Below, one piece after another: positions 1-25,364 of a stretch of 35,078 nucleotides of DNA. Source of the DNA: a virus. The notes beneath the pieces are model-generated. The model was given only the letters and a program-made list of their open reading frames with translations, was not told where the DNA came from and did no database searches. Made by a program: the position numbers and the translations under genes. The DNA lies in IMG/VR virus record IMGVR_UViG_3300025121_000677, positions 1-35,078 of that record. One strand, 5' to 3'. Position 1 is the stretch's first letter. Every line of letters starts with the position of its first letter.

Positions 1-953
1 TAAAACTATCTCCTAGCCAACCACTTCAACAACAATGCTTAGATCTAGATAAAGCACTAAAAAATTGCTTCAAATCAGAATTTGGATTTCCTAAGTTTAA
101 AAAGAAAAGAAAATCTAAAGAAAGTTTTAGGGTTAATCAAAACATTAAAATATCTAAATCTAAAAAATCAATTAAGATTCCTAAAATTGGATTTATTAGA
201 ATCAAACCTAGAATTAATATTAATCTTAAAGATATTAAAAATGTAACCATTAAAAAGCAAGGGAACAATTGGTGTCTTTATATCTGTCATCAATTCAGTA
301 TATTTAGAACTCCAATGTCAGGTAGAAAAGTCGGGTTAGATTTAGGAACAGTAAGATTAGCAACTCTTTCTAATGGAAAAGTGATTGATAAATTTGAAGA
401 TGAAGAGTTACTGAAAAAGATTAAATCAACACAGAGAAAACTAGAAAGGAGGACTAGAAAAAATAAAAAACATAAAATGAAAAAGATTCAATCTATTAGT
501 CGTGCAAAAACCAAGCAATCACTATCTAGATTGAATAAGAAACTTAGAGACAAGAGAAAAGATTACTTAGATAAAGTTTCTAAGAAGTTAGTAAAGAAGT
601 ATGATATGATCTACATTGAAGACTTAAAGATCAAGAATATGACTAGACAAGTAAATAAAACTGATGATGGATCTCATAGAAGTGGTGTCAGTGCTAAATC
701 AGGGCTCAATAGGGAAATACTGAATCAGTCTTGGGGACAACTGATTTCAATATTAGAGTATAAGAGTTCTTGGTTTAACAAAAAGGTGATTAGGGTAAAT
801 CCTGAGAATACTTCTAGGAAATGTAGTAAATGCGGTTTCATTCATAAGAGAAATAGGAGATCTCAAAGTGAGTTCAGATGTTTGAAGTGTGGATATGAAT
901 TAAATGCAGATCATAATGCTGCTATAAATATCAAAAAGAAGGGAATCAGATAA
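1..953 (+). CDS. tnpB: TnpB RNA-guided nuclease (IS605 OrfB family), 5' end outside window
   Basis: Reading frame 3 is open from the window edge, so the gene starts upstream; an internal ATG at 315 is not the real start. The visible part is about 316 residues and aligns from residue 69 onward with the second TnpB of this window (14814-16106). The RuvC-like catalytic parts are all present: Asp in GLDLGTVRLATL, Glu in IYIEDLKIKNM, and Asp in NADHNAAINI, with a zinc ribbon CSKCG ... CLKCGY between the last two. Known TnpB proteins cut DNA under the direction of a transposon-end RNA (omega RNA). No TnpA transposase is visible nearby, so the unit is either mobilised in trans or acts as a homing-type gene. 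It ends in TAA, while the second copy has CAA at the same place and reads on. The nuclease looks active by its residues; activity itself is inferred. Confidence 0.93.
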   Translation, partial: KLSPSQPLQQQCLDLDKALKNCFKSEFGFPKFKKKRKSKESFRVNQNIKISKSKKSIKIPKIGFIRIKPRININLKDIKNVTIKKQGNNWCLYICHQFSIFRTPMSGRKVGLDLGTVRLATLSNGKVIDKFEDEELLKKIKSTQRKLERRTRKNKKHKMKKIQSISRAKTKQSLSRLNKKLRDKRKDYLDKVSKKLVKKYDMIYIEDLKIKNMTRQVNKTDDGSHRSGVSAKSGLNREILNQSWGQLISILEYKSSWFNKKVIRVNPENTSRKCSKCGFIHKRNRRSQSEFRCLKCGYELNADHNAAINIKKKGIR

Positions 954-1082
954 TGGAAAAAAGCAGCTTAGGTGAAAAAAGGTTGGGGCGCAACCATGTG
1001 GAGGACTCATTGAGTCCGTTGAAACTAGAAAGTTCTACCTTAAATGGTAGATGCTCTAACTCCAAAGAATTAGAGAAACGTC
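1..1082 (+). mobile_element. TnpB element 1 (IS605-like, right end at 1082)
   Basis: The right boundary is set by comparison with element 2: both share the tnpB 3' end and a structured right end that stops at the common octamer gaaacgtc (1075-1082). Beyond it the two sequences are unrelated and match different phage genes. The left end lies outside the window. The element is inserted at or very near the start of the HD nucleotidase gene. Confidence 0.75.
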
Positions 1083-1756
1083 ATATATCAGATTTTGTGT
1101 TCAGGGCACGCAGATTATGCAGCATAGACAGATGTTCAAATACTCCGCATATTGGAAAATATCCAGTTTCTGAACATTCATTCTATACTGCCCTCTATGC
1201 AATGTTGTTTGCTGATCTTGAAAATAGTAAATTAAAAAGATATGATACATCAGAAGTTATTAAAAGAGCCCTTATCCATGATATAGAAGAAAGTGTAACT
1301 GGCGACATTTTGTTTCCAGTTAAACATGGATCTGATCAGGTATCAGCATTATTCAAAACAATTGCTATTAAATGCGTAGAGCAAGAAGTGTTTGAAGGGC
1401 TTCCAGAGAATATCAAGCAATACTATATAAATCTATGGAAGTCTTCAAAAGATGGCAGTGAAGAAGGATTACTTGTTTCTGGTGTTGACAAGTTTGAAAT
1501 ATTGATTTACGCATTAACAGAAGTAAAACTTGGAAACACACAGTTTGGTCAGATAATAGACACTGCCTACAATATTATTGTGACTCAATTTTCTAATATA
1601 GAATCTCTAGTTGAAGTTACAAATCAGCTAGTGAATGACTATAGAAAGGAGGCGAACCTTGACATAAATTTTGAAGTTCTATATAAGATGTTTGTTGAAA
1701 GATTGAATAAAGATTGGGCTACAGATAATCCATTTAGAAAATCCATTAACATTTAA
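953..1756 (+). CDS. HD-domain nucleotidase (YfbR-like) with an N-terminus read from the TnpB right end
   Basis: The core from residue 44 on resembles YfbR-type 5'-deoxynucleotidases, about 200-residue HD phosphohydrolases that dephosphorylate dNMPs. Visible metal-site features are SEHS (H75), the HD pair H109-D110 followed by an EE..TGD stretch, and a later Asp in SGVDKFE. Phages use such enzymes to adjust nucleotide pools. The first 43 residues are not part of the family: they are a translation of the TnpB element's right end (conserved there as GRNHVEDS). The ATG overlaps the tnpB stop as TAATG, so translation could be coupled. The family part begins just where YfbR proteins normally start, so only the native start region was displaced. 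A GTG near 1097 is a possible but shorter start. Whether the product is functional is unknown. Confidence 0.8.
   Translation: MEKSSLGEKRLGRNHVEDSLSPLKLESSTLNGRCSNSKELEKRHISDFVFRARRLCSIDRCSNTPHIGKYPVSEHSFYTALYAMLFADLENSKLKRYDTSEVIKRALIHDIEESVTGDILFPVKHGSDQVSALFKTIAIKCVEQEVFEGLPENIKQYYINLWKSSKDGSEEGLLVSGVDKFEILIYALTEVKLGNTQFGQIIDTAYNIIVTQFSNIESLVEVTNQLVNDYRKEANLDINFEVLYKMFVERLNKDWATDNPFRKSINI
970..1102 (+). ncRNA. Putative omega RNA (TnpB guide RNA) of element 1
   Basis: The segment after the tnpB stop holds four successive hairpins: GGTTG/CAACC (981-995), GGACTC/GAGTCC (1003-1017), TCTACC/GGTAGA (1034-1051) and CTCTAA/TTAGAG (1054-1075), then the shared end gaaacgtc (1075-1082). In characterised TnpB systems the guide is the roughly 20 nt immediately beyond the right end, here from 1083 (atatatcagattttg...), which lies in the HD nucleotidase gene. 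The last hairpin differs from that of element 2 by paired changes, supporting a conserved RNA fold. The 5' limit of the RNA is not visible and is probably inside tnpB. Confidence 0.7.
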
Positions 1757-1769
1757 ACAAGGAGAATTT

Positions 1770-2117: not shown

Positions 2118-2125
2118 TTCGCAAT

Positions 2126-2156
2126 GGTAGTGTAGGGTTTCTTTTCCTACACTACC
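2126..2156 (+). terminator. Intrinsic terminator or attenuator hairpin after the HU gene
   Basis: A perfect 11-bp inverted repeat GGTAGTGTAGG / CCTACACTACC (2126-2136 and 2146-2156) encloses a 9-nt T-rich loop and is followed by a pyrimidine-rich run. It sits 9 nt after the HU stop and before the next gene on the same strand, so it probably ends or attenuates the upstream transcript, or protects its 3' end. Confidence 0.65.
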
Positions 2157-2183
2157 TTCATCTTCACTTCTTAGGTAATTCTC

Positions 2184-2693: not shown

Positions 2694-2695
2694 GT

Positions 2696-4066
2696 ATGGC
2701 AGCAAAGATGGGAAAAATGAATGTTGAGAAAGTTAAAACAGAAACTTTCTCAAATCAAAGAGGAAATTTTGCAAAATATTTTAAATATCAAAAAGGCAAT
2801 AATTTCGTTAGAATGCTTCCTCCTGTAGAGGGCCAAGATTTTCCATGGATGCCTTCTAAGAAACATTTCAGTTTAACTGATTCTATGAAAGGAGTGGGAG
2901 GATGTACCTTTAACCCTAAAACATGCTTCGTATGTAAGCAAGTTAGTAAGGATCTTAACTCACCTAAAAAGAAAATAAGAGAAATAGCTGATAAGCGAAA
3001 AGTATCTTCTGGCTATGCCTTCCAAATGATTGATGTAACTCCTCTTTACACTAAGAAGAAAAAAGATGAATTTGTTGCAGATAATCCTCCACCTGATTGT
3101 TGGGGTGAGGTTAAAATAGATGAAGAAGGAGACTTTGTAGGTAAATGCCTCAAATGTTCATGGAATCAATCTTGTTCTAGAGGAGTTCAGATAGGAAATC
3201 TTAGTGGTCAAAGAATTGATGACGTAGCTACTTGTGCCGCTGGTGGTATAGATATTAGTGATCTTAAAGAAGGCAGAAATATTAGAATAAAAAGAAAAGG
3301 TGAAGGGTTTGGAACTTCATATACAATATATTGTGATGAAGATCTGGCATGGACTGTACCAAAGAAAATGAGAAAGTTCATTAGCGAAAATTTCATTGAC
3401 TTGTGTGAAGTTGTAAGGCCAGCCACTCCCCAGGAAACTGAAGAGTCCTGGTATGGCAAAAGCGAAGATGTAGATATGCCTTCTTGCTACGGTGAATATG
3501 GTGAAGAAAATAAAAAGAAATGCAAGAAGTGTGAATATGCTGATATCTGTAAAGAAGAAAAAGCTATAGAAAAAGAATCAAACGATAATGACAATGATGA
3601 TGATAACAATGATGATAGTAAAAAGAGTAAAAAGAAAAAGGATAAGAAGAAATCAAAGAATAAAAAGAAAGATAATGACAATGATAACGACAATAATGAT
3701 AATGACGATGACAATGACGATGATGAAGATGCACTTGCTTCTATGAGCAAAAAAGAATTAAAGCAATTCATTAAAGAAAATGAGTTAGATATTAAAGTAA
3801 CAAAGAAAATGGATGATGACGATATTAGAAAAGCCATTGAAGAAGAACTAAAAAGTAAAAATGATAATAATGATAACGACAATGATAATGATGATAATAA
3901 TGACAATGATAACGATAATGACGACAATAATGATGATAACGATAATAATGATGATAATAATGATGATAACAATAATGACAATGATGATGACAAGAAAAAG
4001 AAAACCAATAAGAAGAAGGGTGAAGATCTAAAAAAGAAACTTAGAGGCAAAGCAAGAAAGAAGTAA
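2696..4066 (+). CDS. gp32-like single-stranded DNA-binding protein with long acidic tail
   Basis: The N-terminal 240 residues fit the T4 gp32 family: a basic start, GNNFVRMLPP (residues 35-43), and a zinc site H57, C70, C77, C80, where H57 and C70 are separated by 12 residues exactly as in the T4 H-x12-C spacing. Gp32 coats single-stranded DNA and organises recombination and replication proteins. Further cysteine groups (C151, C154, C160; C274, C276, C279, C285) are not typical of T4 gp32 and could bind more metal. From about residue 296 the protein becomes Asp/Asn repeats broken by Lys blocks, with a SAP/HeH-like helical segment at about 345-387 (ASMSKKELKQFIKENEL). The acidic tail is far longer than that of T4 gp32. 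I chose ATG 2696, 7 nt after AGGAG, over ATG 2690, which is too close to it. Confidence 0.85.
   Translation: MAAKMGKMNVEKVKTETFSNQRGNFAKYFKYQKGNNFVRMLPPVEGQDFPWMPSKKHFSLTDSMKGVGGCTFNPKTCFVCKQVSKDLNSPKKKIREIADKRKVSSGYAFQMIDVTPLYTKKKKDEFVADNPPPDCWGEVKIDEEGDFVGKCLKCSWNQSCSRGVQIGNLSGQRIDDVATCAAGGIDISDLKEGRNIRIKRKGEGFGTSYTIYCDEDLAWTVPKKMRKFISENFIDLCEVVRPATPQETEESWYGKSEDVDMPSCYGEYGEENKKKCKKCEYADICKEEKAIEKESNDNDNDDDNNDDSKKSKKKKDKKKSKNKKKDNDNDNDNNDNDDDNDDDEDALASMSKKELKQFIKENELDIKVTKKMDDDDIRKAIEEELKSKNDNNDNDNDNDDNNDNDNDNDDNNDDNDNNDDNNDDNNNDNDDDKKKKTNKKKGEDLKKKLRGKARKK
3577..3999 (+). repeat. Low-complexity GAT/AAT (Asp/Asn) codon repeats
   Basis: Two tracts of GAT, GAC, AAT and AAC codons (about 3577-3730 and 3861-3999) encode the acidic tail of the gp32-like protein. 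They are irregular, with no fixed unit, and separate two Lys-rich stretches and a SAP-like segment. Confidence 0.85.
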
Positions 4067-4188: not shown

Positions 4189-5336
4189 TGAAAAAATCGC
4201 TAGTTAGGGAAAAACTAATTGATAGTATTATGAAGAGCAGTACCAAGAAATTTGGTGCTGATTCTGCAGTATTGCTATCATCTTCTAATGTTACGTCAAC
4301 TGTTAGGAAAACCATTCCTACTGGATCATTAGATTTAGATAGAATACTTGCAAAAGATATTAATGGCAAATTTGGTCTTCCGGTTGGTAGAATAATAGGT
4401 ATCTCTGGTAAAGAAGCTTCTGGGAAAACAACTCTCGCTATCTCATTCATGAAAAGTGTACAAGAAATGGGAGGAATGGCAACCATCATTGAAACCGAAA
4501 ATGCTTTTGATCCTGTATATGCTGAGCAACTTGGCCTCAATTTAGATGAACTTATTATATCGCAGCCAGATTATCTTGAACAGGCACTTGACATCATATC
4601 AAATAATATTGAGATGTTTAAACTTGTAAAAGAAGAATATAAAGCAGAAACAGGCAAAGAATTTGATGTTCCAATGATTCAAGTACTTGATTCAATAGCC
4701 GGTGTCCCTCCTAAAGTAGAATGGGAAGCATCCAGTAACGAGGATGAGCAAGCACAAGGATTACATGCCAGAAGACTATCTAGATTCTTCAGGGGAATAA
4801 GTAAACGTATAGCTAGAGAACAAGTTATTCTAGTTTGTACTAATCAAACTAAGACTGATACAAGAGTAAGATATGGTAATGCAAATACCGAAATAGGTGG
4901 AGCTGCATTAAAGTTTCATGCATCTCTAAGGCTTGATATTTGGCGTGATAGTTTTATTAAGCCAACTAAAGATGGTGATCCTATAGGGATCGAAACAAAT
5001 GTAAAGACTATCAAAAATAAAGTCATGGTGCCTTATAAAACAGTTAAGGTGCCAATTATATTCGGAATAGGGATAGACCCTGCAAGATCAATTTTTAACT
5101 TCCTAAAGAATCATAAACTAGTCAAGCATCAAGGCAACACATATTCTTTGTCTTTTAAAAAATATCAAGTAACAGGAGTGGGCGAAACCAACTTTATTAA
5201 GAAGCTTGATGAACATCTCAAAAGTGAAAAATTCAATAAACGATTAGATAGATATATTGAAAGAAGGATGGCTAGGGAGGAAGAAGATGGAAGTGATAAG
5301 GATAAGAGAAAAAAAGCTAGGAAATCTGAAAGTTAA
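4188..5336 (+). CDS. RecA/UvsX-type strand-exchange recombinase
   Basis: This 382-residue protein is a RecA-fold ATPase: Walker A GKEASGKT (residues 74-81; RecA has GPESSGKT), the catalytic-glutamate region ETENAFDPVYAEQLG (E104), Walker B IQVLDS (D168), the switch glutamine region VCTNQ, and a DNA-binding loop region with GNANTEIGGAALKFHASLRL (residues 230-249). It forms filaments on single-stranded DNA and drives strand invasion, which in T4-like phages also starts replication. The C-terminus is Lys/Arg/Glu-rich. It sits between gp32-like and gp47-like genes, and its end overlaps the next gene by 50 bp. The start is set by GAGGAATAG just upstream. Confidence 0.93.
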   Translation: MKKSLVREKLIDSIMKSSTKKFGADSAVLLSSSNVTSTVRKTIPTGSLDLDRILAKDINGKFGLPVGRIIGISGKEASGKTTLAISFMKSVQEMGGMATIIETENAFDPVYAEQLGLNLDELIISQPDYLEQALDIISNNIEMFKLVKEEYKAETGKEFDVPMIQVLDSIAGVPPKVEWEASSNEDEQAQGLHARRLSRFFRGISKRIAREQVILVCTNQTKTDTRVRYGNANTEIGGAALKFHASLRLDIWRDSFIKPTKDGDPIGIETNVKTIKNKVMVPYKTVKVPIIFGIGIDPARSIFNFLKNHKLVKHQGNTYSLSFKKYQVTGVGETNFIKKLDEHLKSEKFNKRLDRYIERRMAREEEDGSDKDKRKKARKSES

Positions 5337-6414
5337 ATCAGGTTTCATAGCTATTGGTGATGTTCATCTCTTCAACGATTATCCATACAATTCATCAGCA
5401 AGTATAATTTCAGATAGACTAATAGATATCGCAACAGTTTTAGATCTTGCATTAGGAGCTGGTGCTGAATTCAAATTACCAGTATTTATTAATGGAGATT
5501 TATTACTACAGAAGACTCTTGATTATGCAGTGCTATCAACATTGGCTATTACTTTTGAATTATATAAAGATGTACGTGTAGTAATAAATTTAGGAAACCA
5601 CGATCTCGAAGGCAAATCTTCAGTGTTATCACCTCTTTTTAGATTTGCTGGCAACGAAAACCATAAGATTATATCAGCCCCAAGTATAATTGACATGAAT
5701 GATTTCAATGCAGTTGTTATTCCTTATGACAATGAAACCCAAAATAGAATTCAAATACTTAATCTCAAAAAAGATCTAAAAAATCAGAACAAAAAGAATA
5801 TCTTATTTGTTCACAATATCTTTAGAAATTCTAAATTTGGAAAAAGAAAAGCTAAATCTGGATTAAGTCAAAAATTATTTACCAAAGGTAAAATGAAAGA
5901 TATATTTAGTTTGATTGTGGCAAGCGATATCCATAAATACCAAGAAATCTGTAATGGTCTAGGATTTTATACCTCATCACCAATACCACTTAATTTTGGG
6001 GAAAGGAGTATAGATCATGGATTTCACATAATAGATTTGAATAAAGATAAAAGATACTTTGTAATTCCTAAGGCACCTAAGTTCATCTACATGGATTTTG
6101 ATAATATAAATGAAGATAAGGTTCCTGGAAATATTGTTAAAATCACATTCACAGATAAAAGCCAAAAAACAAATGAACGGGAAACACATAAAAAATTAAT
6201 GGAACTAGGGGCAAGGCATGTATCTTTTAAAAATGAAACATTTAATACGATCACAGATGATGAAGAAGATATGATTATTAATGAAGAAGATGTTACAACA
6301 GAAGCCATAGTATCAAACTTTAGTAGAATCTTGGCAAGGGAAAAAGAACTTAAAAGGAAAAAGGTTGAAAGAGTAGGCATGAAAATTTTAACTGATGCTA
6401 AGAGTATGAAATGA
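5287..6414 (+). CDS. gp47/SbcD/Mre11-like nuclease subunit
   Basis: A 375-residue calcineurin-like phosphoesterase with the Mre11-type motif order: GDVH (D25, H27), INGD (D71), NLGNHD (N104-H105-D106), FVHN, and SDIH at about residue 218. With the gp46-like partner encoded a little downstream it should form the complex that resects DNA ends to provide 3' strands for the recombinase. I chose ATG 5287, preceded by GGGAGGAAG, over an earlier in-frame ATG at 5257 inside the RecA gene. Even so it overlaps the RecA gene by 50 bp. The C-terminal third is charged and ends in a Lys-rich helix, probably the partner-binding region. The last base triplet overlaps the next ATG. Confidence 0.88.
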   Translation: MEVIRIREKKLGNLKVKSGFIAIGDVHLFNDYPYNSSASIISDRLIDIATVLDLALGAGAEFKLPVFINGDLLLQKTLDYAVLSTLAITFELYKDVRVVINLGNHDLEGKSSVLSPLFRFAGNENHKIISAPSIIDMNDFNAVVIPYDNETQNRIQILNLKKDLKNQNKKNILFVHNIFRNSKFGKRKAKSGLSQKLFTKGKMKDIFSLIVASDIHKYQEICNGLGFYTSSPIPLNFGERSIDHGFHIIDLNKDKRYFVIPKAPKFIYMDFDNINEDKVPGNIVKITFTDKSQKTNERETHKKLMELGARHVSFKNETFNTITDDEEDMIINEEDVTTEAIVSNFSRILAREKELKRKKVERVGMKILTDAKSMK

Positions 6415-6614
6415 ATAAGTATACATTCAATAAATTATATAAACCTGGAACTAAAATCAAGATAATTGAAGATGGCATGTATGGCAATGTACATCTTGGA
6501 CATATATTAACCATTAAAGAAATTGTTATAGGAGAAGCCTTTGGGCCTAAAATAATTACTCAAGAATATCAATCGCGATTTTGGTTACGATTTGAAGTTA
6601 AAATAATAAAATGA
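6411..6614 (+). CDS. Small unknown protein, 67 residues
   Basis: Not recognised. The start overlaps the gp47-like stop as ATGA, which implies translational coupling in the gp47-gp46 operon. The sequence is beta-rich with Gly turns (KPGTKIKIIEDGMYGNVHLG), suggestive of a small SH3-like barrel, but this is only an impression. Confidence 0.6.
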   Translation: MNKYTFNKLYKPGTKIKIIEDGMYGNVHLGHILTIKEIVIGEAFGPKIITQEYQSRFWLRFEVKIIK

Positions 6615-6769
6615 ACATAAAATTAATTTCAGATATGATTCTATTCATGTCTATAAACACACTATTAATGTCAATTTTATCTTTTACTCATAACACGACT
6701 CCGACTCAACTAATTAAATGCATTTTTCTATTGTTGATAATGATATTTATAGCTGGCACAATCGCATGA
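6611..6769 (+). CDS. Small membrane protein, 52 residues
   Basis: An open frame from ATG 6611, overlapping the previous stop as ATGA, to TGA 6767. The product has two hydrophobic segments, around residues 9-25 and 36-52 (KCIFLLLIMIFIAGTIA), so a two-helix inner-membrane protein is likely. No family recognised. It fills what would otherwise be a gap between tightly packed genes, which supports it. Confidence 0.5.
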   Translation: MNIKLISDMILFMSINTLLMSILSFTHNTTPTQLIKCIFLLLIMIFIAGTIA

Positions 6770-6779
6770 GGGAGGGACA

Positions 6780-6989
6780 ATGGACTTTGACTGTAAAACA
6801 ACTATTTGTTACGATAGCGAAGGATCTATTTCACTTGTATTTGAAAATAGAAAACAGATAACCAAACTAATATGGAGGTTAATAGAAAAATACTTTGAAA
6901 AATTTGGAAGAGTGGGTGTTTCTCTTAGAATAAGACCATCATATTGTAGAATGTTTCCTAAAGAAAAAGCTAGGTGTTTGTCATGTTGA
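6780..6989 (+). CDS. Small unknown protein, 69 residues
   Basis: The ATG has a strong ribosome site, GAGGGAGGG, 4 nt upstream. The product is mixed alpha/beta with a Lys/Arg-rich middle (QITKLIWRLIEKYFEKFGR) and a C-terminal CLSC pair. No family recognised. Its end overlaps the start of the gp46-like gene by 7 bp. Confidence 0.6.
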   Translation: MDFDCKTTICYDSEGSISLVFENRKQITKLIWRLIEKYFEKFGRVGVSLRIRPSYCRMFPKEKARCLSC

Positions 6990-8914
6990 CTCTCAAAAAG
7001 TTGAGAATGGTTAATTATATATCTTACAAAGATACCACAATAGATTTTGACAAGGCATTTTCAAAATCTAACATATTATTGATGTATGGAAAGAACTACG
7101 ATGATCAAGCATTTGCATCTGACAACGGAGCTGGTAAGAGTATTATTTATGACGCAGTAGTTTACACACTATTTGATAAGACCACTAAGAATTCTAATAA
7201 AGATCAACTAATTGGTAAGTTTGGCGAATCAATGATGACGGAAATTGAACTCACTAACGGGGTTCATGATTACACAATTACTAGACATAGAAAACATCCT
7301 GAGCACGGAAATGCGGTTCTCTTTGCAAAGAATGGCAAACTTAAGAACATAAAATCAACACAAACTGATATGACAACTTGGATATTATCAAAGTTAGGAT
7401 TATCATATAAAAGAGTTTTGAATACATCTATTTTTGAGAGTAATGACGTCAGAAGCAAATTTATTTACTTAGGTGATAAAGATAGAAAAGAACTATTATC
7501 ACAACTTAAAGGATTAGATATATTTTCAAAATGTGTTGATATTGCAAAATCAAAAGTAGAAGAAGGAAAGCAAGGCATTAATGAACTTAATCATGAATTA
7601 GAAAAGCATTTAATTCTAACTTCTAGGATGAAATCTGAGATTAAAGAACAAAAAAGGCAAAGTAAAATATTTGCAAAAGATAAATTAGAAACAATTGCCA
7701 AACTTATCAAAGAATTAAAAGAAATAAAGGAGAAAATAAAATCACTAGAATCTGATAGAAAAGAATCAATAAAATCCCAGAAGAATTTAATTAAAAATCT
7801 AAGATCTAAAATTAAACCTGTTAAGAAATTGAACAAATTAAAAGATGAATGTGATAAAATAAACAGTCAATTAATGATATGTAAAGCAAATACAATTCAT
7901 CTACAAAATAATATAAATTCATTACAAGACAGAATTAATAACCTACAAAGAAATAGAAAAAATACTGGAGAAACATGCGATGAGTGTGGATCGTTAATAT
8001 CTAATGATAACATAAATAAACTAATTTCTAAACTTAAAACTGAAACAATATCATTAACAAATGATTTAAAGAAAAGAAATGAAGATTATAGACAACTTTG
8101 TGATGATAAAAACATAATAATTCAAAAATTAAAAGATATAGAGGTAATTGTTGCCGAAAATAAAAGAATAGAAAATCAAATATCATCCATAGAGTACGGT
8201 ATTGAAAAACTAAAATCGTTAGCGGATACTAAAGCACTCATGTATAAACAAGATTTTAGTAAACTTCAAAAAAGGATTGATGAAATAAAAAATGCAAAAA
8301 ATGTTCATATAGAAAGAAGTAACACAGTTAGAAAAGAAAAAAAAGAAATTGAAAAAACTATTGATGAACTAAAAGAAGAAGTTAAATCGTTACAAAAGAA
8401 ACTCAGATACAATTTAGCATGGCATGAAGGATATGGCAAAGAAGCAATCCAAGCATTCGCTTTAAAATCGACTGTTGCTGAACTCAATAAGCATATGAGA
8501 GATGTTTCTAATGTTCTAACTGATGGAATCATTGATGTTAAATTACTAACTGAAAAAACCCAAGGCAATCAGAAGATAAGAAATATATTTGAACTTGACA
8601 TATCTGATGCTCACAAAGAAAATCTGCCATTTAAAGAATGGTCAAAGGGCCAAAAGAAAAGAATTGAAATAATATCATCATTTGCGCTAATGAATTTAGA
8701 ATCAAACTTAATAAGTGAAATATTCTTAGATGAATTATTTGATGGCATTGATAAAGTCGGAATCATTAAAATACGAGATTTGCTTGATGAAGAATCAAAC
8801 AACAATAAAAGATTCATAGTAATCTCACATTCTGAACACATCAAAGATCTGTTTCCAAACAGAGCTATGATTAAACTAAAAGACGGCATTAGTACATTCC
8901 ATTTAGAGGGATAA
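6983..8914 (+). CDS. gp46/SbcC/Rad50-like ATPase subunit
   Basis: A 643-residue SMC-type ATPase. The N-terminus has a split Walker A, GKNYDD then DNGAGKS (residues 36-52), as in phage gp46 proteins where extra residues separate the two halves. A long coiled coil runs from about 170 to 480 with the zinc-hook CDEC (C332, C335) at its apex. The C-terminal ATPase lobe has the signature WSKGQKKRIEI, Walker B EIFLDELFDGID and the switch histidine VISHSEH. It pairs with the gp47-like nuclease for end resection. I prefer ATG 6983, with AGGTG upstream, over GTG 6974. Only two small genes separate it from gp47. Confidence 0.92.
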   Translation: MLTLKKLRMVNYISYKDTTIDFDKAFSKSNILLMYGKNYDDQAFASDNGAGKSIIYDAVVYTLFDKTTKNSNKDQLIGKFGESMMTEIELTNGVHDYTITRHRKHPEHGNAVLFAKNGKLKNIKSTQTDMTTWILSKLGLSYKRVLNTSIFESNDVRSKFIYLGDKDRKELLSQLKGLDIFSKCVDIAKSKVEEGKQGINELNHELEKHLILTSRMKSEIKEQKRQSKIFAKDKLETIAKLIKELKEIKEKIKSLESDRKESIKSQKNLIKNLRSKIKPVKKLNKLKDECDKINSQLMICKANTIHLQNNINSLQDRINNLQRNRKNTGETCDECGSLISNDNINKLISKLKTETISLTNDLKKRNEDYRQLCDDKNIIIQKLKDIEVIVAENKRIENQISSIEYGIEKLKSLADTKALMYKQDFSKLQKRIDEIKNAKNVHIERSNTVRKEKKEIEKTIDELKEEVKSLQKKLRYNLAWHEGYGKEAIQAFALKSTVAELNKHMRDVSNVLTDGIIDVKLLTEKTQGNQKIRNIFELDISDAHKENLPFKEWSKGQKKRIEIISSFALMNLESNLISEIFLDELFDGIDKVGIIKIRDLLDEESNNNKRFIVISHSEHIKDLFPNRAMIKLKDGISTFHLEG

Positions 8915-12259: not shown

Positions 12260-12405
12260 CCATGCTTTTGCGAGATACTATAAAATACCTCGCAATTTTT
12301 GCACCTATAACTTTAGCCATAACCATACCTAAAAACACGCCACGAGCAATTTAAAACAGCAAAACGAGCCACGTAATTTACCTTGCAATATACCTGCCGA
12401 GCCAC

Positions 12406-13512
12406 CTACCCCATGATAATCAACTTCGCAGTAACACTTACCGCAGAAGGTGCTTCGCTACTGGTTGAGGAACTTGAAGATTGAGAACTAGAAGAAGTAC
12501 TAGACTCACTCGACTGGGAACTCGAAGAACTAGATGTACTAGAACTAGAAATGCTTGAACTAGATTCACTAGAAGCACTAGAGCTAGAAGATTCAGAACT
12601 AGATGACCAACTAGATCCAGAACTGCTTGAACTAGATTGACTGGAACTAGAGCTTGATTCCTCGGAACTAGACGATTGTGAACTAGAGCTTGATTCTTCA
12701 GAGCTAGAGCTGCTTGACGTCGAACTTGAAGAACTGCTTTCACTAGATAACGATTCACTAGAACTTGATATCGATGATGTAGAGCTACTTGAACTAGATT
12801 CACTAGAATGTGAAGAGCTCAAGGATGAAGTTGAAGAACTAGAACTACTAGATTTAAAATAAGCTTCAGAACTGCTAGATTCACTAGAACTACTAGATTC
12901 TTGAGAACTACTAGATTGCGAGGAACTGGAACTAGATTCACTGCTAGAAGAACTAGAAGTGCTAGAACTTGAACTCTCTTGAGAACTAGAGCTAGATTCA
13001 CTACTAGAAGAGCTAGAAGTAGAAGAACTACTAGCACTTGAACCACTACTAGCTGAAGAACTGCTAGATTCACTAGAACTACTAGCACTAGAACCACTGC
13101 TAACAGAAGAACTGCTAGATTGTGAAGAACTACTAGAACTAGATTCACTACTAGCTGAAGAACTGCTTGATTGTGAACTGCTTGATTGCGAACTAGAACT
13201 AGAAAGAACCCCACTTATTTCAGTAAATCTGAATTTAATAAATTCACTAACAGGATCAATCGCTACAGTATGCCTTTTATGTCCTGCTGACTGAGACGCA
13301 GTAACTACTCCCCATGAAGAATCAGTGAAAAATGTACCATCAGAAGAATCAGCAATATATCTATCAATCTTAATATGACCAATTCCTGTAATAACTACAT
13401 CCAATGCCATATTCCCACCAGGGGCGAAATATGACAATTGTACAGGATCTGATTCAGCATATTCATTCAACCAGATCTCTTGATTTTCAAGTAAAGTTAT
13501 GGTGCTTATCAT
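12406..13512 (-). CDS. Poly-serine virion protein A (globular N-terminus, Ser-rich tail)
   Basis: About 100 N-terminal residues form a globular domain (MISTITLLENQEIW ... SWGVVTASQSAGHKRH ... EFIKFRFTEISGVL) of the kind seen in small phage structural proteins. The next 240 residues are almost only serine in blocks of two to five, broken by single Glu, Gln, Thr or Ala. A short end, APSAVSVTAKLIIMG, closes it. Such stretches are extended, flexible linkers and good O-glycosylation targets. The start is ATG 13512 with AGGAGG 5 nt upstream. It follows a probable tail/fibre adaptor gene and is at the end of the minus-strand operon next to the glycosyltransferase island. Structural location is inferred. 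Confidence 0.7.
   Translation of the reverse strand: MISTITLLENQEIWLNEYAESDPVQLSYFAPGGNMALDVVITGIGHIKIDRYIADSSDGTFFTDSSWGVVTASQSAGHKRHTVAIDPVSEFIKFRFTEISGVLSSSSSQSSSSQSSSSSASSESSSSSSSQSSSSSVSSGSSASSSSESSSSSASSGSSASSSSTSSSSSSESSSSSQESSSSSTSSSSSSESSSSSSQSSSSQESSSSSESSSSEAYFKSSSSSSSTSSLSSSHSSESSSSSSTSSISSSSESLSSESSSSSSTSSSSSSEESSSSSQSSSSEESSSSSSQSSSSSSGSSWSSSSESSSSSASSESSSSISSSSTSSSSSSQSSESSTSSSSQSSSSSTSSEAPSAVSVTAKLIIMG
12480..13200. repeat. Degenerate serine-codon repeat tract of protein A
   Basis: Irregular short repeats built on ctagattcactagaa-like words on the plus strand encode the poly-serine blocks of the minus-strand gene. Serine is spelled with both TCN and AGY codons, so the tract is not a simple trinucleotide expansion. 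Confidence 0.8.
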
Positions 13513-13530
13513 CACAGCCTCCTCGGTTAA

Positions 13531-13866
13531 TTAAGTTTCAACAATTCTCATGTTAATATCGGATTCAAACTTCTGATAACTATCATCAGGTAATTGTTTG
13601 TCTGTTGTGATTTTAGTTGTTATCTTGTAAGTGCTTCCAGTAACCCCGCCTTTCACTCCTATTAATATATATCCAGCATATTCATCCGTTCCAATTTCTG
13701 ATCCAGCTATTACTGTACTAGTAGCATCAGCACTGGATAGTGTAGCAGTAACAGTTTTTGCAGTTATTGTTTCATCAGAATCTAATCTCTTTTTAAAAGA
13801 TATACCTATGACAAATTCTTCATATGGTTGTTTGGTAAATGATGATGGTGAAGTTGGCATGACCAT
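13531..13866 (-). CDS. Probable virion protein, fibre/tail adaptor-like, 111 residues
   Basis: An immunoglobulin-like beta protein: KQPYEEFVIGISFKKRL, then DETITAKTVTATLSSADATS, then GVKGGVTGSTYKITTKITT. This arrangement (a small beta domain ending in a Y.I...ITT strand) is common in short phage structural proteins annotated as fibre-tail adaptors or head-tail accessory proteins. The start overlaps the upstream stop as TAATG; a second ATG at 13860 is also possible. It lies between a glycosyltransferase gene and poly-serine protein A. The exact role is inferred. Confidence 0.6.
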   Translation of the reverse strand: MVMPTSPSSFTKQPYEEFVIGISFKKRLDSDETITAKTVTATLSSADATSTVIAGSEIGTDEYAGYILIGVKGGVTGSTYKITTKITTDKQLPDDSYQKFESDINMRIVET

Positions 13867-14567
13867 TACCCCGTAATAAATTTACTATAATACTTCCTAA
13901 GTAATCTTTCTAATCTTATTGAACCAGCTATTGAATTATCTACAATTGGAGTCATGAAAGCCCTCCAAGCTCTTCGCTTGTAAGGGTGAAAATGGCAAAC
14001 CTTGATAGGCTTTTCGCTTCTTTGAAATCTTGGAATAAACCCACTGCATCCCACATTATATGTATTGTTAAGAACAGTAACTCTATCTTTATACTTTGAT
14101 TTCAATAATCTATTAAGGGTTGGTTCTTCTTTTCTCTGTTCACCACTAAGGATATTATTTACAATATCACTAACAATATCTTTCGCACTACTTTTCCAAA
14201 AGACACTTCCCCCATTGAACTTAGGTCTACTGTAACAACATACCCCGACATCTTTAAATTCAGGTTCTTTAAAAGGCCAATTCTGCCAAGCATCTAAATC
14301 ATGCGCCCATATTGTGTCTATAGAAACATTATCATAGAACCATTTGACTGCAAACATTTTACTACCAGTCAAACAAGTTTTATTAAGTTCAGTATTATGA
14401 GCCTTAACGCCCATGAATTCATGATCAAAATTAGCAATAAGAATTATATCTTCTGGTAGCCATCCAAGTTCAAGAGAATTTTCAATTTGAGCATTAATTA
14501 ATAGTGAAATATGTTCTGGACAATATCTCCAAGTATTACTCATATTTGCGACTATAAGGTTCTTCAT
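13866..14567 (-). CDS. Probable glycosyltransferase (GT-A fold, DxD), 233 residues
   Basis: The order KNLIVANMSNTWRYC, EDIILIANFDHEF, then IWAHDLDAWQ with a DLD metal motif (D90, D92), and GGSVFWKSS fits a nucleotide-sugar-binding GT-A enzyme. The start is ATG 14567, overlapping the stop of the GT remnant as ATGA; an earlier in-frame ATG lies inside that remnant. It is part of the glycan island. Donor and acceptor are unknown. Confidence 0.6.
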   Translation of the reverse strand: MKNLIVANMSNTWRYCPEHISLLINAQIENSLELGWLPEDIILIANFDHEFMGVKAHNTELNKTCLTGSKMFAVKWFYDNVSIDTIWAHDLDAWQNWPFKEPEFKDVGVCCYSRPKFNGGSVFWKSSAKDIVSDIVNNILSGEQRKEEPTLNRLLKSKYKDRVTVLNNTYNVGCSGFIPRFQRSEKPIKVCHFHPYKRRAWRAFMTPIVDNSIAGSIRLERLLRKYYSKFITG

Positions 14568-14860
14568 ACAGAAACATCCTTGAATGATATAAGGGGTGCC
14601 TCTCCCCATTCTCTATTTTCATTAGCTCTATAGATTCCATACAAAAGATTAAAGAAAGAAATGACTTTATTCAATTTTTCAGTATAACGCCAATTCTTGT
14701 TTATCATATTTATAGTTTTACTTTGTTTTTCAGTAACCACATTTATGTATTTCTTACCAAAACACATAGCCGTAAATCCAAGTCCAAATGCCCTATTAAG
14801 AATGTCTCTATCATCAGCTCCATGACGTTTCCTTAGAATTACTTCTAAGGCATCTACCAT
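14564..14860 (-). pseudogene. C-terminal remnant of a GT2-like glycosyltransferase
   Basis: From about 14823 down, the frame reads HGADDRDILNRAFGLGFTAM and on to WGEAPLISFKDVSV. It is clearly similar to the last 90 residues of the intact GT2 protein at 16106-16975 (GVDDRDIMCRAFGLGFTAMC). The rest of the gene, including the nucleotide-sugar and DxD region, is missing and replaced by TnpB element 2. The open frame's apparent start, ATG 14858-14860, lies within the element's right end. It is probably non-functional, though it might still be translated and couples by ATGA to the next gene. Confidence 0.8.
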
Positions 14861-14945
14861 CTAAGATAGAACTTTCTAGCTTCATTAGACTCTGTGAGTC
14901 CTCCACATGGTTACGTCCAAACCTTTTTAATTCTACGCTGCCTTT
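14804..14945 (-). ncRNA. Putative omega RNA of TnpB element 2
   Basis: Read on the minus strand, the tnpB 3' part forms the same four hairpins as in element 1: a GGTT/AACC stem (14909-14923), a GGACTC stem with one G-T pair (14887-14901), TCTATC/GGTAGA (14853-14870), and CCTTAGAA/TTCTAAGG (14831-14850). The last stem has a different sequence from element 1 but still pairs perfectly. The guide begins after gaaacgtc at 14823 (atggagctgatgatag...), inside the GT remnant. The 5' limit is not defined. Confidence 0.7.
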
Positions 14946-16106
14946 TTTCCATTGCCTAATACCTAATCTTTTGATATTCTTTGCAGCATTGTGATCTGCA
15001 TTTAGCTCATAACCACACTTTAAGCACTTAAATTCTGATTGTGATCTCCTATTTCTCTTGTGAGTGAATCCACATTCACTACATCTTTGTGATGTGTGAT
15101 GGGGATCTACTTTAATCATACTCTTATTGAACCACTTAGATTTATAATCTAACATGTTTATCAGTTGACCCCAAGATTGATTGAGTATTTCTCTATTCAA
15201 TCCTGATTTGGCACTAACACTTTTTCTTGGAGATCCATCTTCATTTTCTCTTACTTGTCTAGTCATATTGGATATTTTCAAGTCTTCAATACAGATCACG
15301 TCATATCGTTTCACTAACTTCTTAGAAACTTTATCTAAGTAATCTTTTCTCTTGTCTCTAAGTTTCTTATTCAATCTAGATAGTGATTGCTTGGTTTTTG
15401 CACGACTAATAGATTGAATTTTTTTCATTCTATACTTACGATTTCTTCTAGTTCTCCTTTCTAGTTTTCTTTGAGTTGATTTAAATTTTTTTACTAATTC
15501 TTTGTCTTCAAACTTATCAATCACTTTACCATTACTGAGAGTTGCTAACCTAACAGTTCCTAAATCTAATCCAACTCTTTTCCCAGTCATTGGGGTTCTA
15601 AAGATATTGAATTGATGACATATAGAAAGATACCAATGATTATTGATCTTTTTGATGGTTACATTCTTGATATCTTTTAAATTAATATTGATTTTAGGCT
15701 TAATTCTAATGAATCCAATTTTAGGTATTCTTATGGATTTTCTTGATTTAGAAAACCAAAATCTTTGAACTATTTTAAAACTTTCTTTAGATTTACCTTT
15801 CTTTTTAAACTTAGGAAATCCAAATTCAGATTTATAACAATTCTTGATAGCTTTATCAAGATTCAAACATTGCTGTTGGAGCGATTGTGCTGGTGATAAT
15901 TTTAACCATTCATATTCTTCTTTTAATTTAGTTAACTCCTTACACATATCATATCCAAAGATAAACTTACCACTAACAAAATGATGTTTAATATTTCTCA
16001 TCAAGAAGTGATTCCAAACAAATCTATTATTACCACAGAATTGATTAAACATCTGTTCTTGAGATTTAGTAGGATAGATTCTATATGTTATAGATTTAAA
16101 AAACAT
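14814..16106 (-). CDS. tnpB: TnpB RNA-guided nuclease (IS605 OrfB family), complete
   Basis: A complete 430-residue protein starting MFFKSITYRIYPTKSQEQMF, the usual TnpB opening, followed by the helical region and RuvC fold. Catalytic Asp181 (GLDLG), Glu274 (ICIEDL) and Asp371 (NADHNAA) are present, as is the zinc ribbon C342, C345, C361, C364. The ATG overlaps the stop of the upstream GT2 gene as TAATG, leaving no room for a separate left end. Where TnpB copy 1 has TAA this copy has CAA, so it runs through the right-end RNA region (GRNHVEDSQS) and stops in flanking DNA. In known systems TnpB uses the transposon-end RNA to cut a matching target next to a short motif. Identity to copy 1 is high but clearly diverged. 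Confidence 0.93.
   Translation of the reverse strand: MFFKSITYRIYPTKSQEQMFNQFCGNNRFVWNHFLMRNIKHHFVSGKFIFGYDMCKELTKLKEEYEWLKLSPAQSLQQQCLNLDKAIKNCYKSEFGFPKFKKKGKSKESFKIVQRFWFSKSRKSIRIPKIGFIRIKPKININLKDIKNVTIKKINNHWYLSICHQFNIFRTPMTGKRVGLDLGTVRLATLSNGKVIDKFEDKELVKKFKSTQRKLERRTRRNRKYRMKKIQSISRAKTKQSLSRLNKKLRDKRKDYLDKVSKKLVKRYDVICIEDLKISNMTRQVRENEDGSPRKSVSAKSGLNREILNQSWGQLINMLDYKSKWFNKSMIKVDPHHTSQRCSECGFTHKRNRRSQSEFKCLKCGYELNADHNAAKNIKRLGIRQWKKGSVELKRFGRNHVEDSQSLMKLESSILDGRCLRSNSKETSWS
14824..16106 (-). mobile_element. TnpB element 2 (IS605-like, tnpA absent)
   Basis: The right end, defined by comparison with element 1, stops at gaaacgtc (plus-strand 14824-14831). The left boundary is at or near the tnpB ATG, because the intact GT2 gene ends there with a C-terminus like that of its paralog. 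No TnpA gene or obvious subterminal left-end hairpin is seen, so the element is non-autonomous or spread by recombination. Confidence 0.7.
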
Positions 16107-16975
16107 TATAATTCCAATTCCCAAAATGATTTAAGATCATTAACAACTCCCCATTTTCTATTTATGTTAGCTTTATAAAGACCATAAGCTAAATTAAAAA
16201 ATGAAATAATTTTGTTCAATTTTTCTGTATACTTCCAATTTTGATTAATCATATTTATAGTCTTATTTTCTTTAATTATTTGCTCTACTATTCCAAAATA
16301 TTTACCTCCAAAACACATGGCTGTAAATCCTAACCCAAAAGCTCTGCACATGATATCTCTATCATCTACACCATAACCAATGAAGTCTTCGTTGTACCCC
16401 CCAAGTAATTCTATAAATTCTTTTTTATAGAATCCAAGTCTGCCTCTTAACATTCTTTTACCTTTTGCAAAAATGGCCATTTCTGGTTTAGCATTTGCCA
16501 ATTGATTTATTTTTGACGCAAATCCTTTATTAGTTAAGTTATCAGCATCTACATTCACTACGATATCACCCTTGGCCTGCTTAAAAGCAATATTCCGCGA
16601 ATGAGACATACTATAATGACTAGGTTCTTCAGTCCTATAAAATATTAATCTACCTTCGTTTATTAATTCTAAATATAATGGTTGTGATAAAAAATTAATT
16701 AGCTTAATTAATTCATTACTAGAGCTATTATAATCTAATATCAAAAACTCTAGGTTAGGATAATCCTTATTATCCTCTATGTTTTGTGGCAATGACCTAA
16801 TTAAATCATCACTTCGGTTCATAACAGTTGTACATAGTGAAATTTTATTATTCACAAGAATGGACTCGCCATCGTCACATGTTTTATATTTTTCATCAAC
16901 AAAAATAGTCCATGCCCCATGTTCGAAAATATTACTAAATAATTCTTTAATAACTATTTTATTAAATTCTATCAT
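16106..16975 (-). CDS. Family 2-type glycosyltransferase, intact copy
   Basis: A 289-residue GT-A enzyme: ISLCTTVMNRSDDLIRSL (residues 45-62), the donor-site strand FLILDYNSSSN, the helix SHSRNIAFKQAKGDI, and the metal motif NVDADN (D143, D145). The C-terminal part, GYGVDDRDIMCRAFGLGF, is like the galactosyltransferase/N-acetylgalactosaminyltransferase C-terminal region in which the acidic residues bind acceptor or metal. It would add a sugar to a growing glycan or a protein. The C-terminus is repeated as a remnant at 14564-14823 on the far side of TnpB element 2. The ribosome site before ATG 16975 is weak. Confidence 0.8.
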   Translation of the reverse strand: MIEFNKIVIKELFSNIFEHGAWTIFVDEKYKTCDDGESILVNNKISLCTTVMNRSDDLIRSLPQNIEDNKDYPNLEFLILDYNSSSNELIKLINFLSQPLYLELINEGRLIFYRTEEPSHYSMSHSRNIAFKQAKGDIVVNVDADNLTNKGFASKINQLANAKPEMAIFAKGKRMLRGRLGFYKKEFIELLGGYNEDFIGYGVDDRDIMCRAFGLGFTAMCFGGKYFGIVEQIIKENKTINMINQNWKYTEKLNKIISFFNLAYGLYKANINRKWGVVNDLKSFWELEL

Positions 16976-17014: not shown

Positions 17015-17578
17015 TCAGCTAGCTTTCTCATACGCCCTCGTATTTTTTTTTAGCCAAGGTAAATCTGCTGCCACTTGAAGCCTTATAGTCAATTCTTCGT
17101 GAAGTTCAAAACCATATTTGAGCATTTTTTGCATCACATATTTATAATCTCTGCAATTAACATGCCCAGAACCTTTTTGGCCTGGAGGAGCCCAACTTAG
17201 TATCAAATATCTAGAGCAATAGCGAACTAGATTTTCAATAAATATTGTTTCAAATTTTTCTGGAATATGTTCACCTACTTCTAAGCACATCACTAAATCA
17301 TAATCAATACCAACATACCTTTCTTTAGTAAGATCAACTGTCATAATATCTTTATAAATTCCTAATTTTGAAACACCAAATGTCCCATCATACCCGTGAA
17401 CAATAGGCCATCCTGCCTCTTTGAATTTAGAACAATACCATCCATCACCACAACCTACGTCAGCAAATTTTTTAGGATGAAAAAATTTTAATATTTCACT
17501 AGCAAGACCTTCATCATGCTTGTGATTTTTTCTAGCAAGCCTAGCTGACCAAATTCCCGTTTCTGGATCTAATCTCAT
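17015..17578 (-). CDS. Class I SAM-dependent methyltransferase
   Basis: A 187-residue protein with the SAM-binding motif FADVGCGDGWY (residues 38-48), a following GYDGTFGV segment and a VMCLEVGEHIPE motif IV, the usual order of small-molecule or sugar methyltransferases (Methyltransf_23-like). The ATG lies 2 nt after the stop of the FkbM gene. In this neighbourhood it probably methylates a sugar or glycan; a protein or other substrate cannot be excluded. Confidence 0.8.
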   Translation of the reverse strand: MRLDPETGIWSARLARKNHKHDEGLASEILKFFHPKKFADVGCGDGWYCSKFKEAGWPIVHGYDGTFGVSKLGIYKDIMTVDLTKERYVGIDYDLVMCLEVGEHIPEKFETIFIENLVRYCSRYLILSWAPPGQKGSGHVNCRDYKYVMQKMLKYGFELHEELTIRLQVAADLPWLKKNTRAYEKAS

Positions 17579-23912: not shown

Positions 23913-25364
23913 TTAAGAAACTTTAAAGTTTGTTATTAATTTATCAACTTTGAAATTTGTTATTAATTTATCAACTTTGAAATTTGTTATTAATTTATCA
24001 ACTTTGAAAACAATAGATGGATCTGATAGATCTGTAAAAACTGTAGAACTGCTTGACTGTGAAGAGCTACTTTGGATAGAAGAACTTGATTGAGAACTAC
24101 TTGAACTTGATAGTGGATGAAATGATTCGCTTGAACTACTTGATTGTGAAGAACTTGAAGTGCTAGATGAACTACTTTCACTAGAACTAGATGATTGTGA
24201 ACTACTACTTTCACTAGAACTAGATGATTGTGAAGAACTCGATTCGCTAGAAGAACTAGATTGTGATGAACTTGATTCACTAGAACTAGATGATTGTGAA
24301 CTACTAGAAATCGAACTGCTACTCGATTGTGAGCTACTCGATTCGCTAGAAGAACTAGATTGTGATGAACTAGAAGTACTAGAACTTGATTGTGATGAAC
24401 TAGATTCACTAGATGAACTCGATTGTGAAGAACTAGATTCACTAGAACTAGATGATTGTGATGAACTAGAAGTAGAAGAACTACTTGATTGCGAAGAACT
24501 AGATTTACTAGAACTACTACTTTCACTAGAACTACTAGACTGTGATGAACTTGACGTACTAGAACTGCTTGATTTGCTTGAAGAGCTTAACGATTCACTT
24601 GATGAAGACGAACTGAGATGTAATAAACTACTCTCACTAGAAGAACTAGATTGTGATGAACTAGATTCACTAGATGAACTTGACTCACTACTACTAGATT
24701 CACTAGATGAACTTGACTCACTACTACTAGATTCACTAGATGAACTTGACTCACTACTACTAGATTCACTAGATGAACTTGACTCACTACTACTAGATTC
24801 ACTAGATGAACTAGACTCACTAGAAGAACTAGATTGTGATGAACTACTCTCACTAGATGAACTAGATTGTGATGAACTACTCTCACTAGAACTAGATGAT
24901 TGTGAACTACTACTTTCACTAGAACTAGATGATTGTGAACTACTACTCTCACTAGATGAACTAGATTGTGATGAACTACTCTCACTAGAACTAGATGATT
25001 GTGAACTACTACTTTCACTAGAACTAGATGATTGTGAACTACTACTTTCACTAGATGAACTAGATGATTGTGATGAACTAGATTCACTAGAGCTACTAGA
25101 TTGAGAAGAACTTGACTTACTACTACTAGATTCACTAGAAGAACTAGATTGTGAGCTACTAGAACTACTAGATTGAGAAGAACTAGATGTACTAGACGAG
25201 CTAGATTCGGATAAACTAGATTCACTAGAACTACTTGATTCCCCGCCCGCCTCCGTATCCCCCGGCACCAGCCCCGCCGCAATGTAATAGGCGTTACTGG
25301 TCGCCCCCGTGGAGTTGTCAATCGGGACTAGGCCGGCTGAAATCTGATATTCGTTCGATGCCAT
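23913..25364 (-). CDS. Poly-serine virion protein B
   Basis: The 483-residue protein starts with two copies of a short motif, EYQISAGLVPIDN and AYYIAAGLVPGDT, about 20 residues apart, followed by over 380 residues of serine blocks broken by E, Q, T or K. Near its end are three copies of FKVDKLITN. No enzyme motif is present. It resembles protein A only in the serine region. The N-terminal 40 residues are GC-rich, the serine part AT-rich. Probably an extended fibre or decoration protein; it borders the glycosyltransferase island, suggesting its serines are acceptors. Confidence 0.65.
   Translation of the reverse strand: MASNEYQISAGLVPIDNSTGATSNAYYIAAGLVPGDTEAGGESSSSSESSLSESSSSSTSSSSQSSSSSSSQSSSSSESSSSKSSSSQSSSSSESSSSQSSSSSSESSSSQSSSSSESSSSQSSSSSESSSSQSSSSSESSSSQSSSSSESSSSQSSSSSESSSSQSSSSSESSSSQSSSSSESSSSSESSSSESSSSSESSSSESSSSSESSSSESSSSSESSSSESSSSSESSSSQSSSSSESSLLHLSSSSSSESLSSSSKSSSSSTSSSSQSSSSSESSSSSKSSSSQSSSSSTSSSSQSSSSSESSSSQSSSSSESSSSQSSSSTSSSSQSSSSSESSSSQSSSSSISSSSQSSSSSESSSSQSSSSSESSSSQSSSSSESSSSQSSSSSESSSSSTSSSSQSSSSSESFHPLSSSSSSQSSSSIQSSSSQSSSSTVFTDLSDPSIVFKVDKLITNFKVDKLITNFKVDKLITNFKVS
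23921..24007. repeat. 27-bp direct repeat, about three copies
   Basis: The unit ttgttattaatttatcaact plus 7 more bases repeats with near-perfect identity and encodes FKVDKLITN three times at the C-terminus of poly-serine protein B. The final copy runs straight into the stop. Confidence 0.85.
24664..24795. repeat. 33-bp tandem repeat, four perfect copies, in poly-serine gene B
   Basis: The unit begins gattcactagatgaacttg and continues for 13 more bases; copies start at 24664, 24697, 24730 and 24763, and a fifth diverges after 17 bases at 24796. Each encodes 11 residues of serine with two Glu. Perfect copies imply recent expansion by slippage or recombination. Longer imperfect repeats flank it from 24,830 to 25,080. 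Confidence 0.9.

What the first reader, a model, noticed from the sequence alone, without database searches (positions are those of the whole stretch)
14804..16975. TnpB element 2 sits between an intact glycosyltransferase gene and the C-terminal remnant of its paralog
The remnant (14564-14823) matches the last 90 residues of the intact GT2 gene upstream of tnpB, and the junction falls exactly at the end of the tnpB right end. The tnpB ATG overlaps the intact gene's stop with no space for a left end. One reading: the element came in together with a replacement C-terminus that restores the gene and carries mismatches to the guide (differences at guide positions 5, 7, 8 and 20), leaving the old C-terminus behind. 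This would protect the carrier from its own nuclease. Alternative: a tandem GT duplication later cut by insertion and deletion.
Basis: partly seen in the sequence, partly recalled or inferred. Interest (0 to 1): 0.75.

Follow-up and report, generated by a model that had tools for sequence, protein, structure and literature searches.

The report
TnpB element restoring its target gene
In an uncultured phage, a small RNA-guided DNA-cutting gene (tnpB) sits between a complete sugar-transferase gene and the cut-off tail of a related one, so the phage seems to carry both the cutter and a repaired, poorly matching version of the gene it is aimed at, as some selfish fungal mitochondrial genes do; this is inferred from sequence and no cutting has been tested.

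Summary
On the minus strand, a complete GT2 glycosyltransferase (16106-16975) ends in TTAT|AATG, where tnpB starts. The shared 3' end of the element, ...GAAACGTCAT (three other copies in the same phage), meets codon 203 of a second GT allele (remnant 14564-14821, 85 aa, 65% identical). The remnant keeps the ancestral slot: it overlaps the next gene by ATGA, as in relatives. In most of about 21 relative contigs one GT stands at this locus; two have tandem GTs, but those paralogs are unrelated, while intact and remnant C-termini are sisters (100/99). The guide covers the conserved Y-G-x-D-D-x-D codons; the carrier's own GT has the same TAM-like TTAT but mismatches at guide positions 3, 5, 6 and 18.

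Both junctions look like canonical TTAT insertions, one at the GT/next-gene boundary and one inside GT. I infer that recombination or donor-templated repair joined two insertion alleles. Simple insertion plus deletion is less likely but not excluded. One more phage TnpB among 93 surveyed loci shows the layout (L139: 12-codon tail duplicated, differences silent). Fungal mitochondrial mORFs with foreign C-termini are the closest precedent; I found no description for TnpB in open literature. Cleavage, homing and self-protection are untested.

The parts
16106..16975 (-). complete GT2-family glycosyltransferase (289 aa)
   Evidence: Pfam PF10111/PF00535; AlphaFold model resembles GT-A enzymes, best 6yv7
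16106..16372 (-). alternative C-terminal part of the intact GT, from codon 202 (the first codon equivalent to the remnant)
   Evidence: alignment with remnant, 65% aa identity, sister in tree 100/99
16108..16111 (-). TTAT directly before the element; also the last codon of GT plus the first base of its stop
   Evidence: relatives have [A/T]TAT|GAA at the GT/next-gene junction, L035 TTAT|GAAGAA
14822..16107 (-). TnpB element C: AATG ... GAAACGTCAT, no left end
   Evidence: boundaries from copies A, B, D
14814..16106 (-). tnpB, 430 aa, RuvC residues D181, E274, D371 and four zinc-binding Cys present
14822..14946 (-). omegaRNA/right-end scaffold with four hairpins
   Evidence: 98.9% of cells paired, 5 pairs with changes on both sides across four copies
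14800..14821 (-). predicted guide GGAGCTGATGATAGAGACATTC
   Evidence: sequence directly after the right end
14564..14821 (-). GT C-terminal remnant (85 aa + stop) in the ancestral slot
   Evidence: ATGA overlap with next gene
16351..16376 (-). guide-equivalent site in the intact GT: TTAT|GGTGTAGATGATAGAGATATCA
   Evidence: mismatches 3, 5, 6, 18, 21, 22; best near-match (4 of 20) in the phage sequence held
13866..14567 (-). gene next to GT in relatives (234 aa, no Pfam match)
   Evidence: 53-58% identical homologs adjacent to GT in relatives
17015..17578 (-). methyltransferase upstream of GT, syntenic in relatives
1..1084 (+). TnpB element B (5' part lies in contig 000817)

Best explanation
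Element C is a TnpA-less TnpB homing element that carries a working, guide-mismatched 3' end for the gene it is aimed at. Structure (shown): a complete GT with its own C-terminus, then tnpB and omegaRNA, then the C-terminus of a second GT allele as the guide flank, in the ancestral slot before the next gene. Origin (inferred): one insertion allele at the GT/next-gene junction (TTAT|GA) and one inside GT at its Tyr-Gly-x-Asp-Asp codons (TTAT|GG) were joined by recombination inside tnpB between co-infecting phages, or by equivalent donor-templated repair. Working (inferred): TnpB with its omegaRNA cuts GT alleles like the remnant in co-infecting phages lacking the element; repair from the carrier, with homology in the GT N-terminus on one side and in the remnant and next gene on the other, installs alternative C-terminus + tnpB and leaves the old C-terminus as a new remnant. 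GT stays functional and the carrier's own copy is spared by seed mismatches.
For: Exact junctions and four element copies; TnpB catalytic residues intact; omegaRNA helices supported by compensatory changes; no TnpA in about 149 kb held. About 21 distinct contigs keep GT near the same next gene, mostly as a single GT; intact and remnant C-termini are sisters (100/99) and unrelated to the tandem paralogs. Remnant keeps ATGA overlap with next gene. Ka 0.26 and saturated Ks between the two C-termini: both evolved as working ends for nearly all of their divergence. Guide covers codons conserved in all orthologs, mostly preceded by TAT. tnpB copies recombine: A and B are identical over about 640-750 nt in the middle but 62-82% identical at third positions at the ends. 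A second TnpB case, L139, has a duplicated gene end with silent differences. The fungal mORF precedent has the same anatomy (PMC3630166, PMC4019555).
Against: No element-free close relative; neither C-terminus is closer to distant relatives. N- and C-terminal trees are too weak to show that the intact GT is a chimera. TTAT at the left flank could be chance (1.0% of positions). TTAT as TAM is read from few junctions; copies B and D do not show it at their left flank. Mosaicism of tnpB C itself is only suggestive (p = 0.017). Only 2 of 93 surveyed TnpB loci show the layout. TnpB can tolerate single mismatches next to a strong TAM (PMC11043419), so protection is not assured.
Confidence: 0.5

Rival explanations
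1. Tandem GT duplication: two neighbouring GT genes stood in one genome, the TnpB element inserted into the second at TTAT|GG, and a deletion later removed the N-terminal part of the second GT and the element's left end.
For: Tandem GTs occur near this locus in two relatives (L016/L024 and L028). The saturated Ks with low Ka fits two long-lived functional paralogs. The right junction is a normal TnpB insertion.
Against: The tandem partners there are 34-35% paralogs outside the intact/remnant clade; other contigs have one GT. The deletion would have to end exactly at the GT1 stop and the first base of the element, leaving TTAT|AATG with no stray base. The layout recurs in an unrelated phage (L139).
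Confidence: 0.27
2. Composite debris: recombination between two tnpB insertions, or between diverged phages, made the structure, but it has no homing role now; tnpB is an ordinary accessory gene or a decaying IS fragment.
For: No TnpA; no left end; copy D in the same phage is a solo omegaRNA whose tnpB is gone; yfbR next to copy B is rearranged.
Against: TnpB C has intact active site and omegaRNA under structural constraint; three of four copies keep full-length tnpB; the guide faces a conserved motif that the carrier's own GT mismatches.
Confidence: 0.18
3. Assembly artefact: two phage strains were joined inside the tnpB repeat, so that the intact GT and the remnant belong to different genomes.
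For: The A/B repeat did break the assembly at window position 1, and tnpB copies share long identical stretches.
Against: C is only 76-92% identical to A and B in 150-nt windows, too diverged for the assembler to confuse over most of its length; remnant and intact GT both fit the same operon order; L139 shows the layout independently.
Confidence: 0.05

Closest known systems
Fungal mitochondrial mORFs with foreign C-termini (Allomyces atp6; Glomus atp6, atp9, cox2, nad3; PMC3630166)
   Same: Endonuclease ORF directly behind a host gene whose 3' end it replaced; native 3' end left downstream; the two ends diverged (64-81% nt there, 68% here) with the protein constrained.
   Different: Those use protein-guided LAGLIDADG/GIY-YIG nucleases in mitochondria; here the nuclease is RNA-guided TnpB in a phage and the leftover 3' end is itself the guide template.
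TnpB of IS200/IS605 (ISDra2; PMC8612924)
   Same: RuvC nuclease, omegaRNA from the right end, guide from the flank, proposed homing by cutting the empty site.
   Different: No TnpA, no left end; target gene is kept whole by an alternative 3' end instead of being interrupted.
Free-standing homing endonucleases of T4-like phages (seg, mob; PMC2988022)
   Same: Mobile nuclease genes between or inside phage genes, inherited by cutting co-infecting phages.
   Different: Protein-guided; gene insertions there split genes, and the review holds no word on duplicated gene ends.
Synthetic recoded-rescue gene drives (e.g. PMC7609566)
   Same: Nuclease plus guide linked to a mismatched, functional version of the target gene.
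   Different: Engineered, Cas9 in insects; a formal analogy only.

Membership tests
IS200/IS605 TnpB | OrfB and Cas12f1-like TNB domains, RuvC D-E-D | tested here: met
   Pfam PF01385, PF07282, PF12323; D181, E274, D371 invariant
IS200/IS605 TnpB | omegaRNA at the 3' end with flank-derived guide | tested here: met
   four helices with compensatory changes, element end exact in four copies
IS200/IS605 TnpB | linked or nearby TnpA (optional in the family) | tested here: not met
   PF01797 absent from G000, G001, G002 and the L139 record, controls positive
IS200/IS605 TnpB | subterminal left-end palindrome | tested here: not met
   tnpB ATG overlaps the GT stop; homology of copies starts at AATG
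IS200/IS605 TnpB | TAM at the left flank | tested here: inconclusive
   TTAT in C, ATAT in A, not in B or D
mORF-type C-terminus-replacing homing element | complete host gene with diverged alternative 3' end before the nuclease gene | tested here: met
mORF-type C-terminus-replacing homing element | native 3' end left behind the nuclease gene | tested here: met
   remnant in ancestral slot
mORF-type C-terminus-replacing homing element | native end matches element-free relatives better than the inserted end | tested here: inconclusive
   only distant relatives; 33.4% vs 34.2% mean identity
mORF-type C-terminus-replacing homing element | nuclease cuts the element-free allele | not testable with these tools
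   needs a biochemical assay
Free-standing phage homing endonuclease | LAGLIDADG, GIY-YIG, HNH, EDxHD or PD-(D/E)xK nuclease | tested here: not met
   only TnpB domains

The most novel reading that the evidence does not exclude
A natural, RNA-guided home-and-rescue drive: TnpB elements in phages that spread by cutting a conserved motif of a surface-sugar gene in co-infecting phages while supplying a guide-resistant 3' end, with the displaced old 3' end becoming the template for the next guide. L139 would be a second, independent member with silent recoding.
Probability: 0.4. Interest if true: 0.85.

Novelty: new variant of a known kind. Interest (0 to 1): 0.62.

Why it matters
TnpB spread is usually explained by TnpA transposition followed by TnpB restoring lost copies. 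This anatomy suggests a route that needs no TnpA and costs the carrier little: sit at a conserved coding motif but bring a working, mismatched 3' end. It would tie RNA-guided nucleases to the homing-endonuclease way of life in phages, show a natural counterpart of recoded-rescue gene drives, and help explain how tnpB persists in large phages. It is directly testable with a purified RNP and two short DNA targets.

Tried and rejected
Close GT relatives: none in viral contigs with the GT alone or with the intact/remnant pair, nor by DNA in INPHARED; distant ones came through the neighbouring gene and a five-GT profile. Element A was first read as a second case (radical-SAM C-terminus 'KLVKRRGG' vs 'KPVKRPWE'); rejected: its alignment score of 22 is near the null mean, and A reads as a plain insertion at a start codon (GAGGCATAT|GAAATTAG) whose ATG the right end restores. 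Radical-SAM relatives: none but itself. TnpB relatives in bacterial genomes: none found in two scans, so the family's ends and TAM could not be fixed from cellular copies. L156 also beat the null, but it is a duplicated right-end-like repeat, not a gene end. L094 beat the protein null only through a repeat array. GC and GC3 do not separate the intact GT N-part, its C-part and the remnant.

Full report
WHERE IT IS. The window is a 35,078-base IMG/VR record. Its first 126 bases are identical to the end of IMGVR_UViG_3300025073_000817 (114,591 b), inside a tnpB, so window and contig are very probably neighbouring parts of one phage of about 150 kb (inference). That phage holds four copies of one element family: A (L003, about 6000-7266), B (end of L004 plus window 1-1084), C (the finding) and D (L008/L015, a solo right end without tnpB, also in IMGVR_UViG_3300009285_010022).

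THE OBSERVATION. On the minus strand the GT (16106-16975, 289 aa) ends GAATTGGAATTATAATG: the GT stop TAA shares a base with the tnpB ATG. The four copies agree up to GAAACGTCAT and differ from there on, which fixes the right end. In C the next base starts the codon equivalent to GT codon 202/203 in a second GT allele, and homology continues to its stop (14564-14821, 85 aa; 65% aa, 68% nt identity). The remnant stop overlaps the next gene by ATGA.

THE PARTS WORK ON PAPER. TnpB C has the Pfam TnpB domains and the D-E-D triad. The right end folds into four hairpins kept by compensatory changes across the four copies: 98.9% of cells paired, five pairs with changes on both sides, slid controls near zero. 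No TnpA was found in the records held. The GT model matches GT-A enzymes; the insertion point precedes the Y-G-x-D-D-x-D motif, so a plain insertion would probably have killed the gene (inference).

RELATIVES. Scans with the neighbouring gene and a GT profile gave 26 loci (about 21 distinct contigs) with GT near that same gene; many have methyltransferase-GT-neighbour order, and several have a GT directly overlapping the neighbour. Two contigs have tandem GTs, but those partners are 34-35% paralogs. In a tree of C-terminal parts intact and remnant are sisters with 100/99 support. But the confirming case, an element-free close relative, was not seen either. Ka is 0.26 with saturated Ks: the two C-termini diverged as working ends, and the remnant became one late.

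TWO JUNCTIONS. In relatives the GT/neighbour junction often reads [A/T]TATGAA-, in L035 TTATGAAGAA. The intact GT end, TTAT|AATG, is what insertion at that junction gives; the right junction is what insertion at TAT|GG inside GT gives, since nearly all ortholog sites have TAT at that place. Copy A shows the plain case: GAGGCATAT|AATG... ...GTCAT|GAAATTAG, where the element takes over the ribosome site of a start codon and its last bases rebuild the ATG. C therefore looks like the left half of one insertion and the right half of another. Recombination among tnpB copies is documented by A and B, which are identical in the middle but not at the ends. This composite reading is an inference. Its main rival, tandem duplication plus deletion, needs a deletion that stops at exactly the right base (TTAT occurs at 1.0% of positions).

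SELF-SPARING. The intact GT site is the nearest match to guide C in the phage sequence held (4 mismatches in 20, three within the first six) and keeps TTAT. For Ymu1 TnpB, mismatches in the first 1-4 nt abolished unwinding (PMC12803034), but another TnpB tolerated single mismatches beside its best TAM (PMC11043419). Protection is likely, not shown.

IS IT GENERAL? Among 93 TnpB loci, mostly phage, comparing the upstream gene end with the sequence behind tnpB gave three loci above 8556 mismatched pairs. L156 is a repeat array. The other two are C and L139 (IMGVR_UViG_3300000553_000009): there the upstream gene ends DIKTFVEETLE, and DIKTFVEETLE* stands again right behind the right end, 32 of 36 bases identical and the protein unchanged, overlapping a downstream epimerase gene. 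So the layout is rare but recurs in another phage with a different TnpB.

WHAT IS KNOWN. Homing by TnpB was proposed with its discovery (PMC8612924). Fungal mitochondrial mORFs have the same anatomy with protein-guided nucleases (PMC3630166; PMC4019555). Searches for TnpB with phage homing in open PMC text found no description of gene-end duplication; subscription papers are not covered. Hence 'new variant of a known kind'.

VERDICT. Structure: confirmed. Replacement C-terminus with the old end left behind: favoured, about 0.7 against duplication plus deletion and other routes. A working homing element with self-sparing: about 0.5. All functional steps are inference.

Noticed in passing
L156 (Lactobacillus phage Lpa804, MG557979) 1341-3293 and L094 (IMGVR_UViG_2513237302_000002) 2629-2934 and 4439-4737: tnpB flanked on both sides by arrays of about 36-42-nt hairpin repeats at a mostly 66-nt period with unique stretches between them: CRISPR-like arrays of right-end-like units.
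   Followed up: partly
L003 8541-9713: An IscB-like gene (RRXRR + HNH) lies about 1.3 kb from TnpB copy A in the same phage; an HNH/NUMOD4 gene follows at 12293-13165.
   Followed up: no
window 1-1084 vs L003 6001-7266: tnpB copies A and B are identical over about 640-750 nt in the middle but 10-20% diverged at both ends: recent gene conversion within one phage.
   Followed up: yes
window 953-1756 (+): yfbR-like gene without its own start is fused in frame to a reading frame running through the omegaRNA of copy B; its ATG overlaps the tnpB stop (TAATG).
   Followed up: no
L008 about 1288-1430; also L009: Copy D: omegaRNA and right end kept, tnpB lost, between a Mu-like protease gene and the next gene; nearly identical in two metagenomes.
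   Followed up: partly
L017 9138-10019: In a relative, an extra 293-aa gene (CapR domain by Pfam; possible nuclease by eye) sits in the same GT/neighbour junction, overlapping both genes; a GIY-YIG/NUMOD3 gene lies at 6771-7634.
   Followed up: partly
window 12406-13515, 23913-25364, 27541-29427 (-): Several proteins with long serine-rich SSSSQSSSSE repeats next to glycosyltransferase and methyltransferase genes, possibly a glycosylated virion decoration (guess).
   Followed up: no
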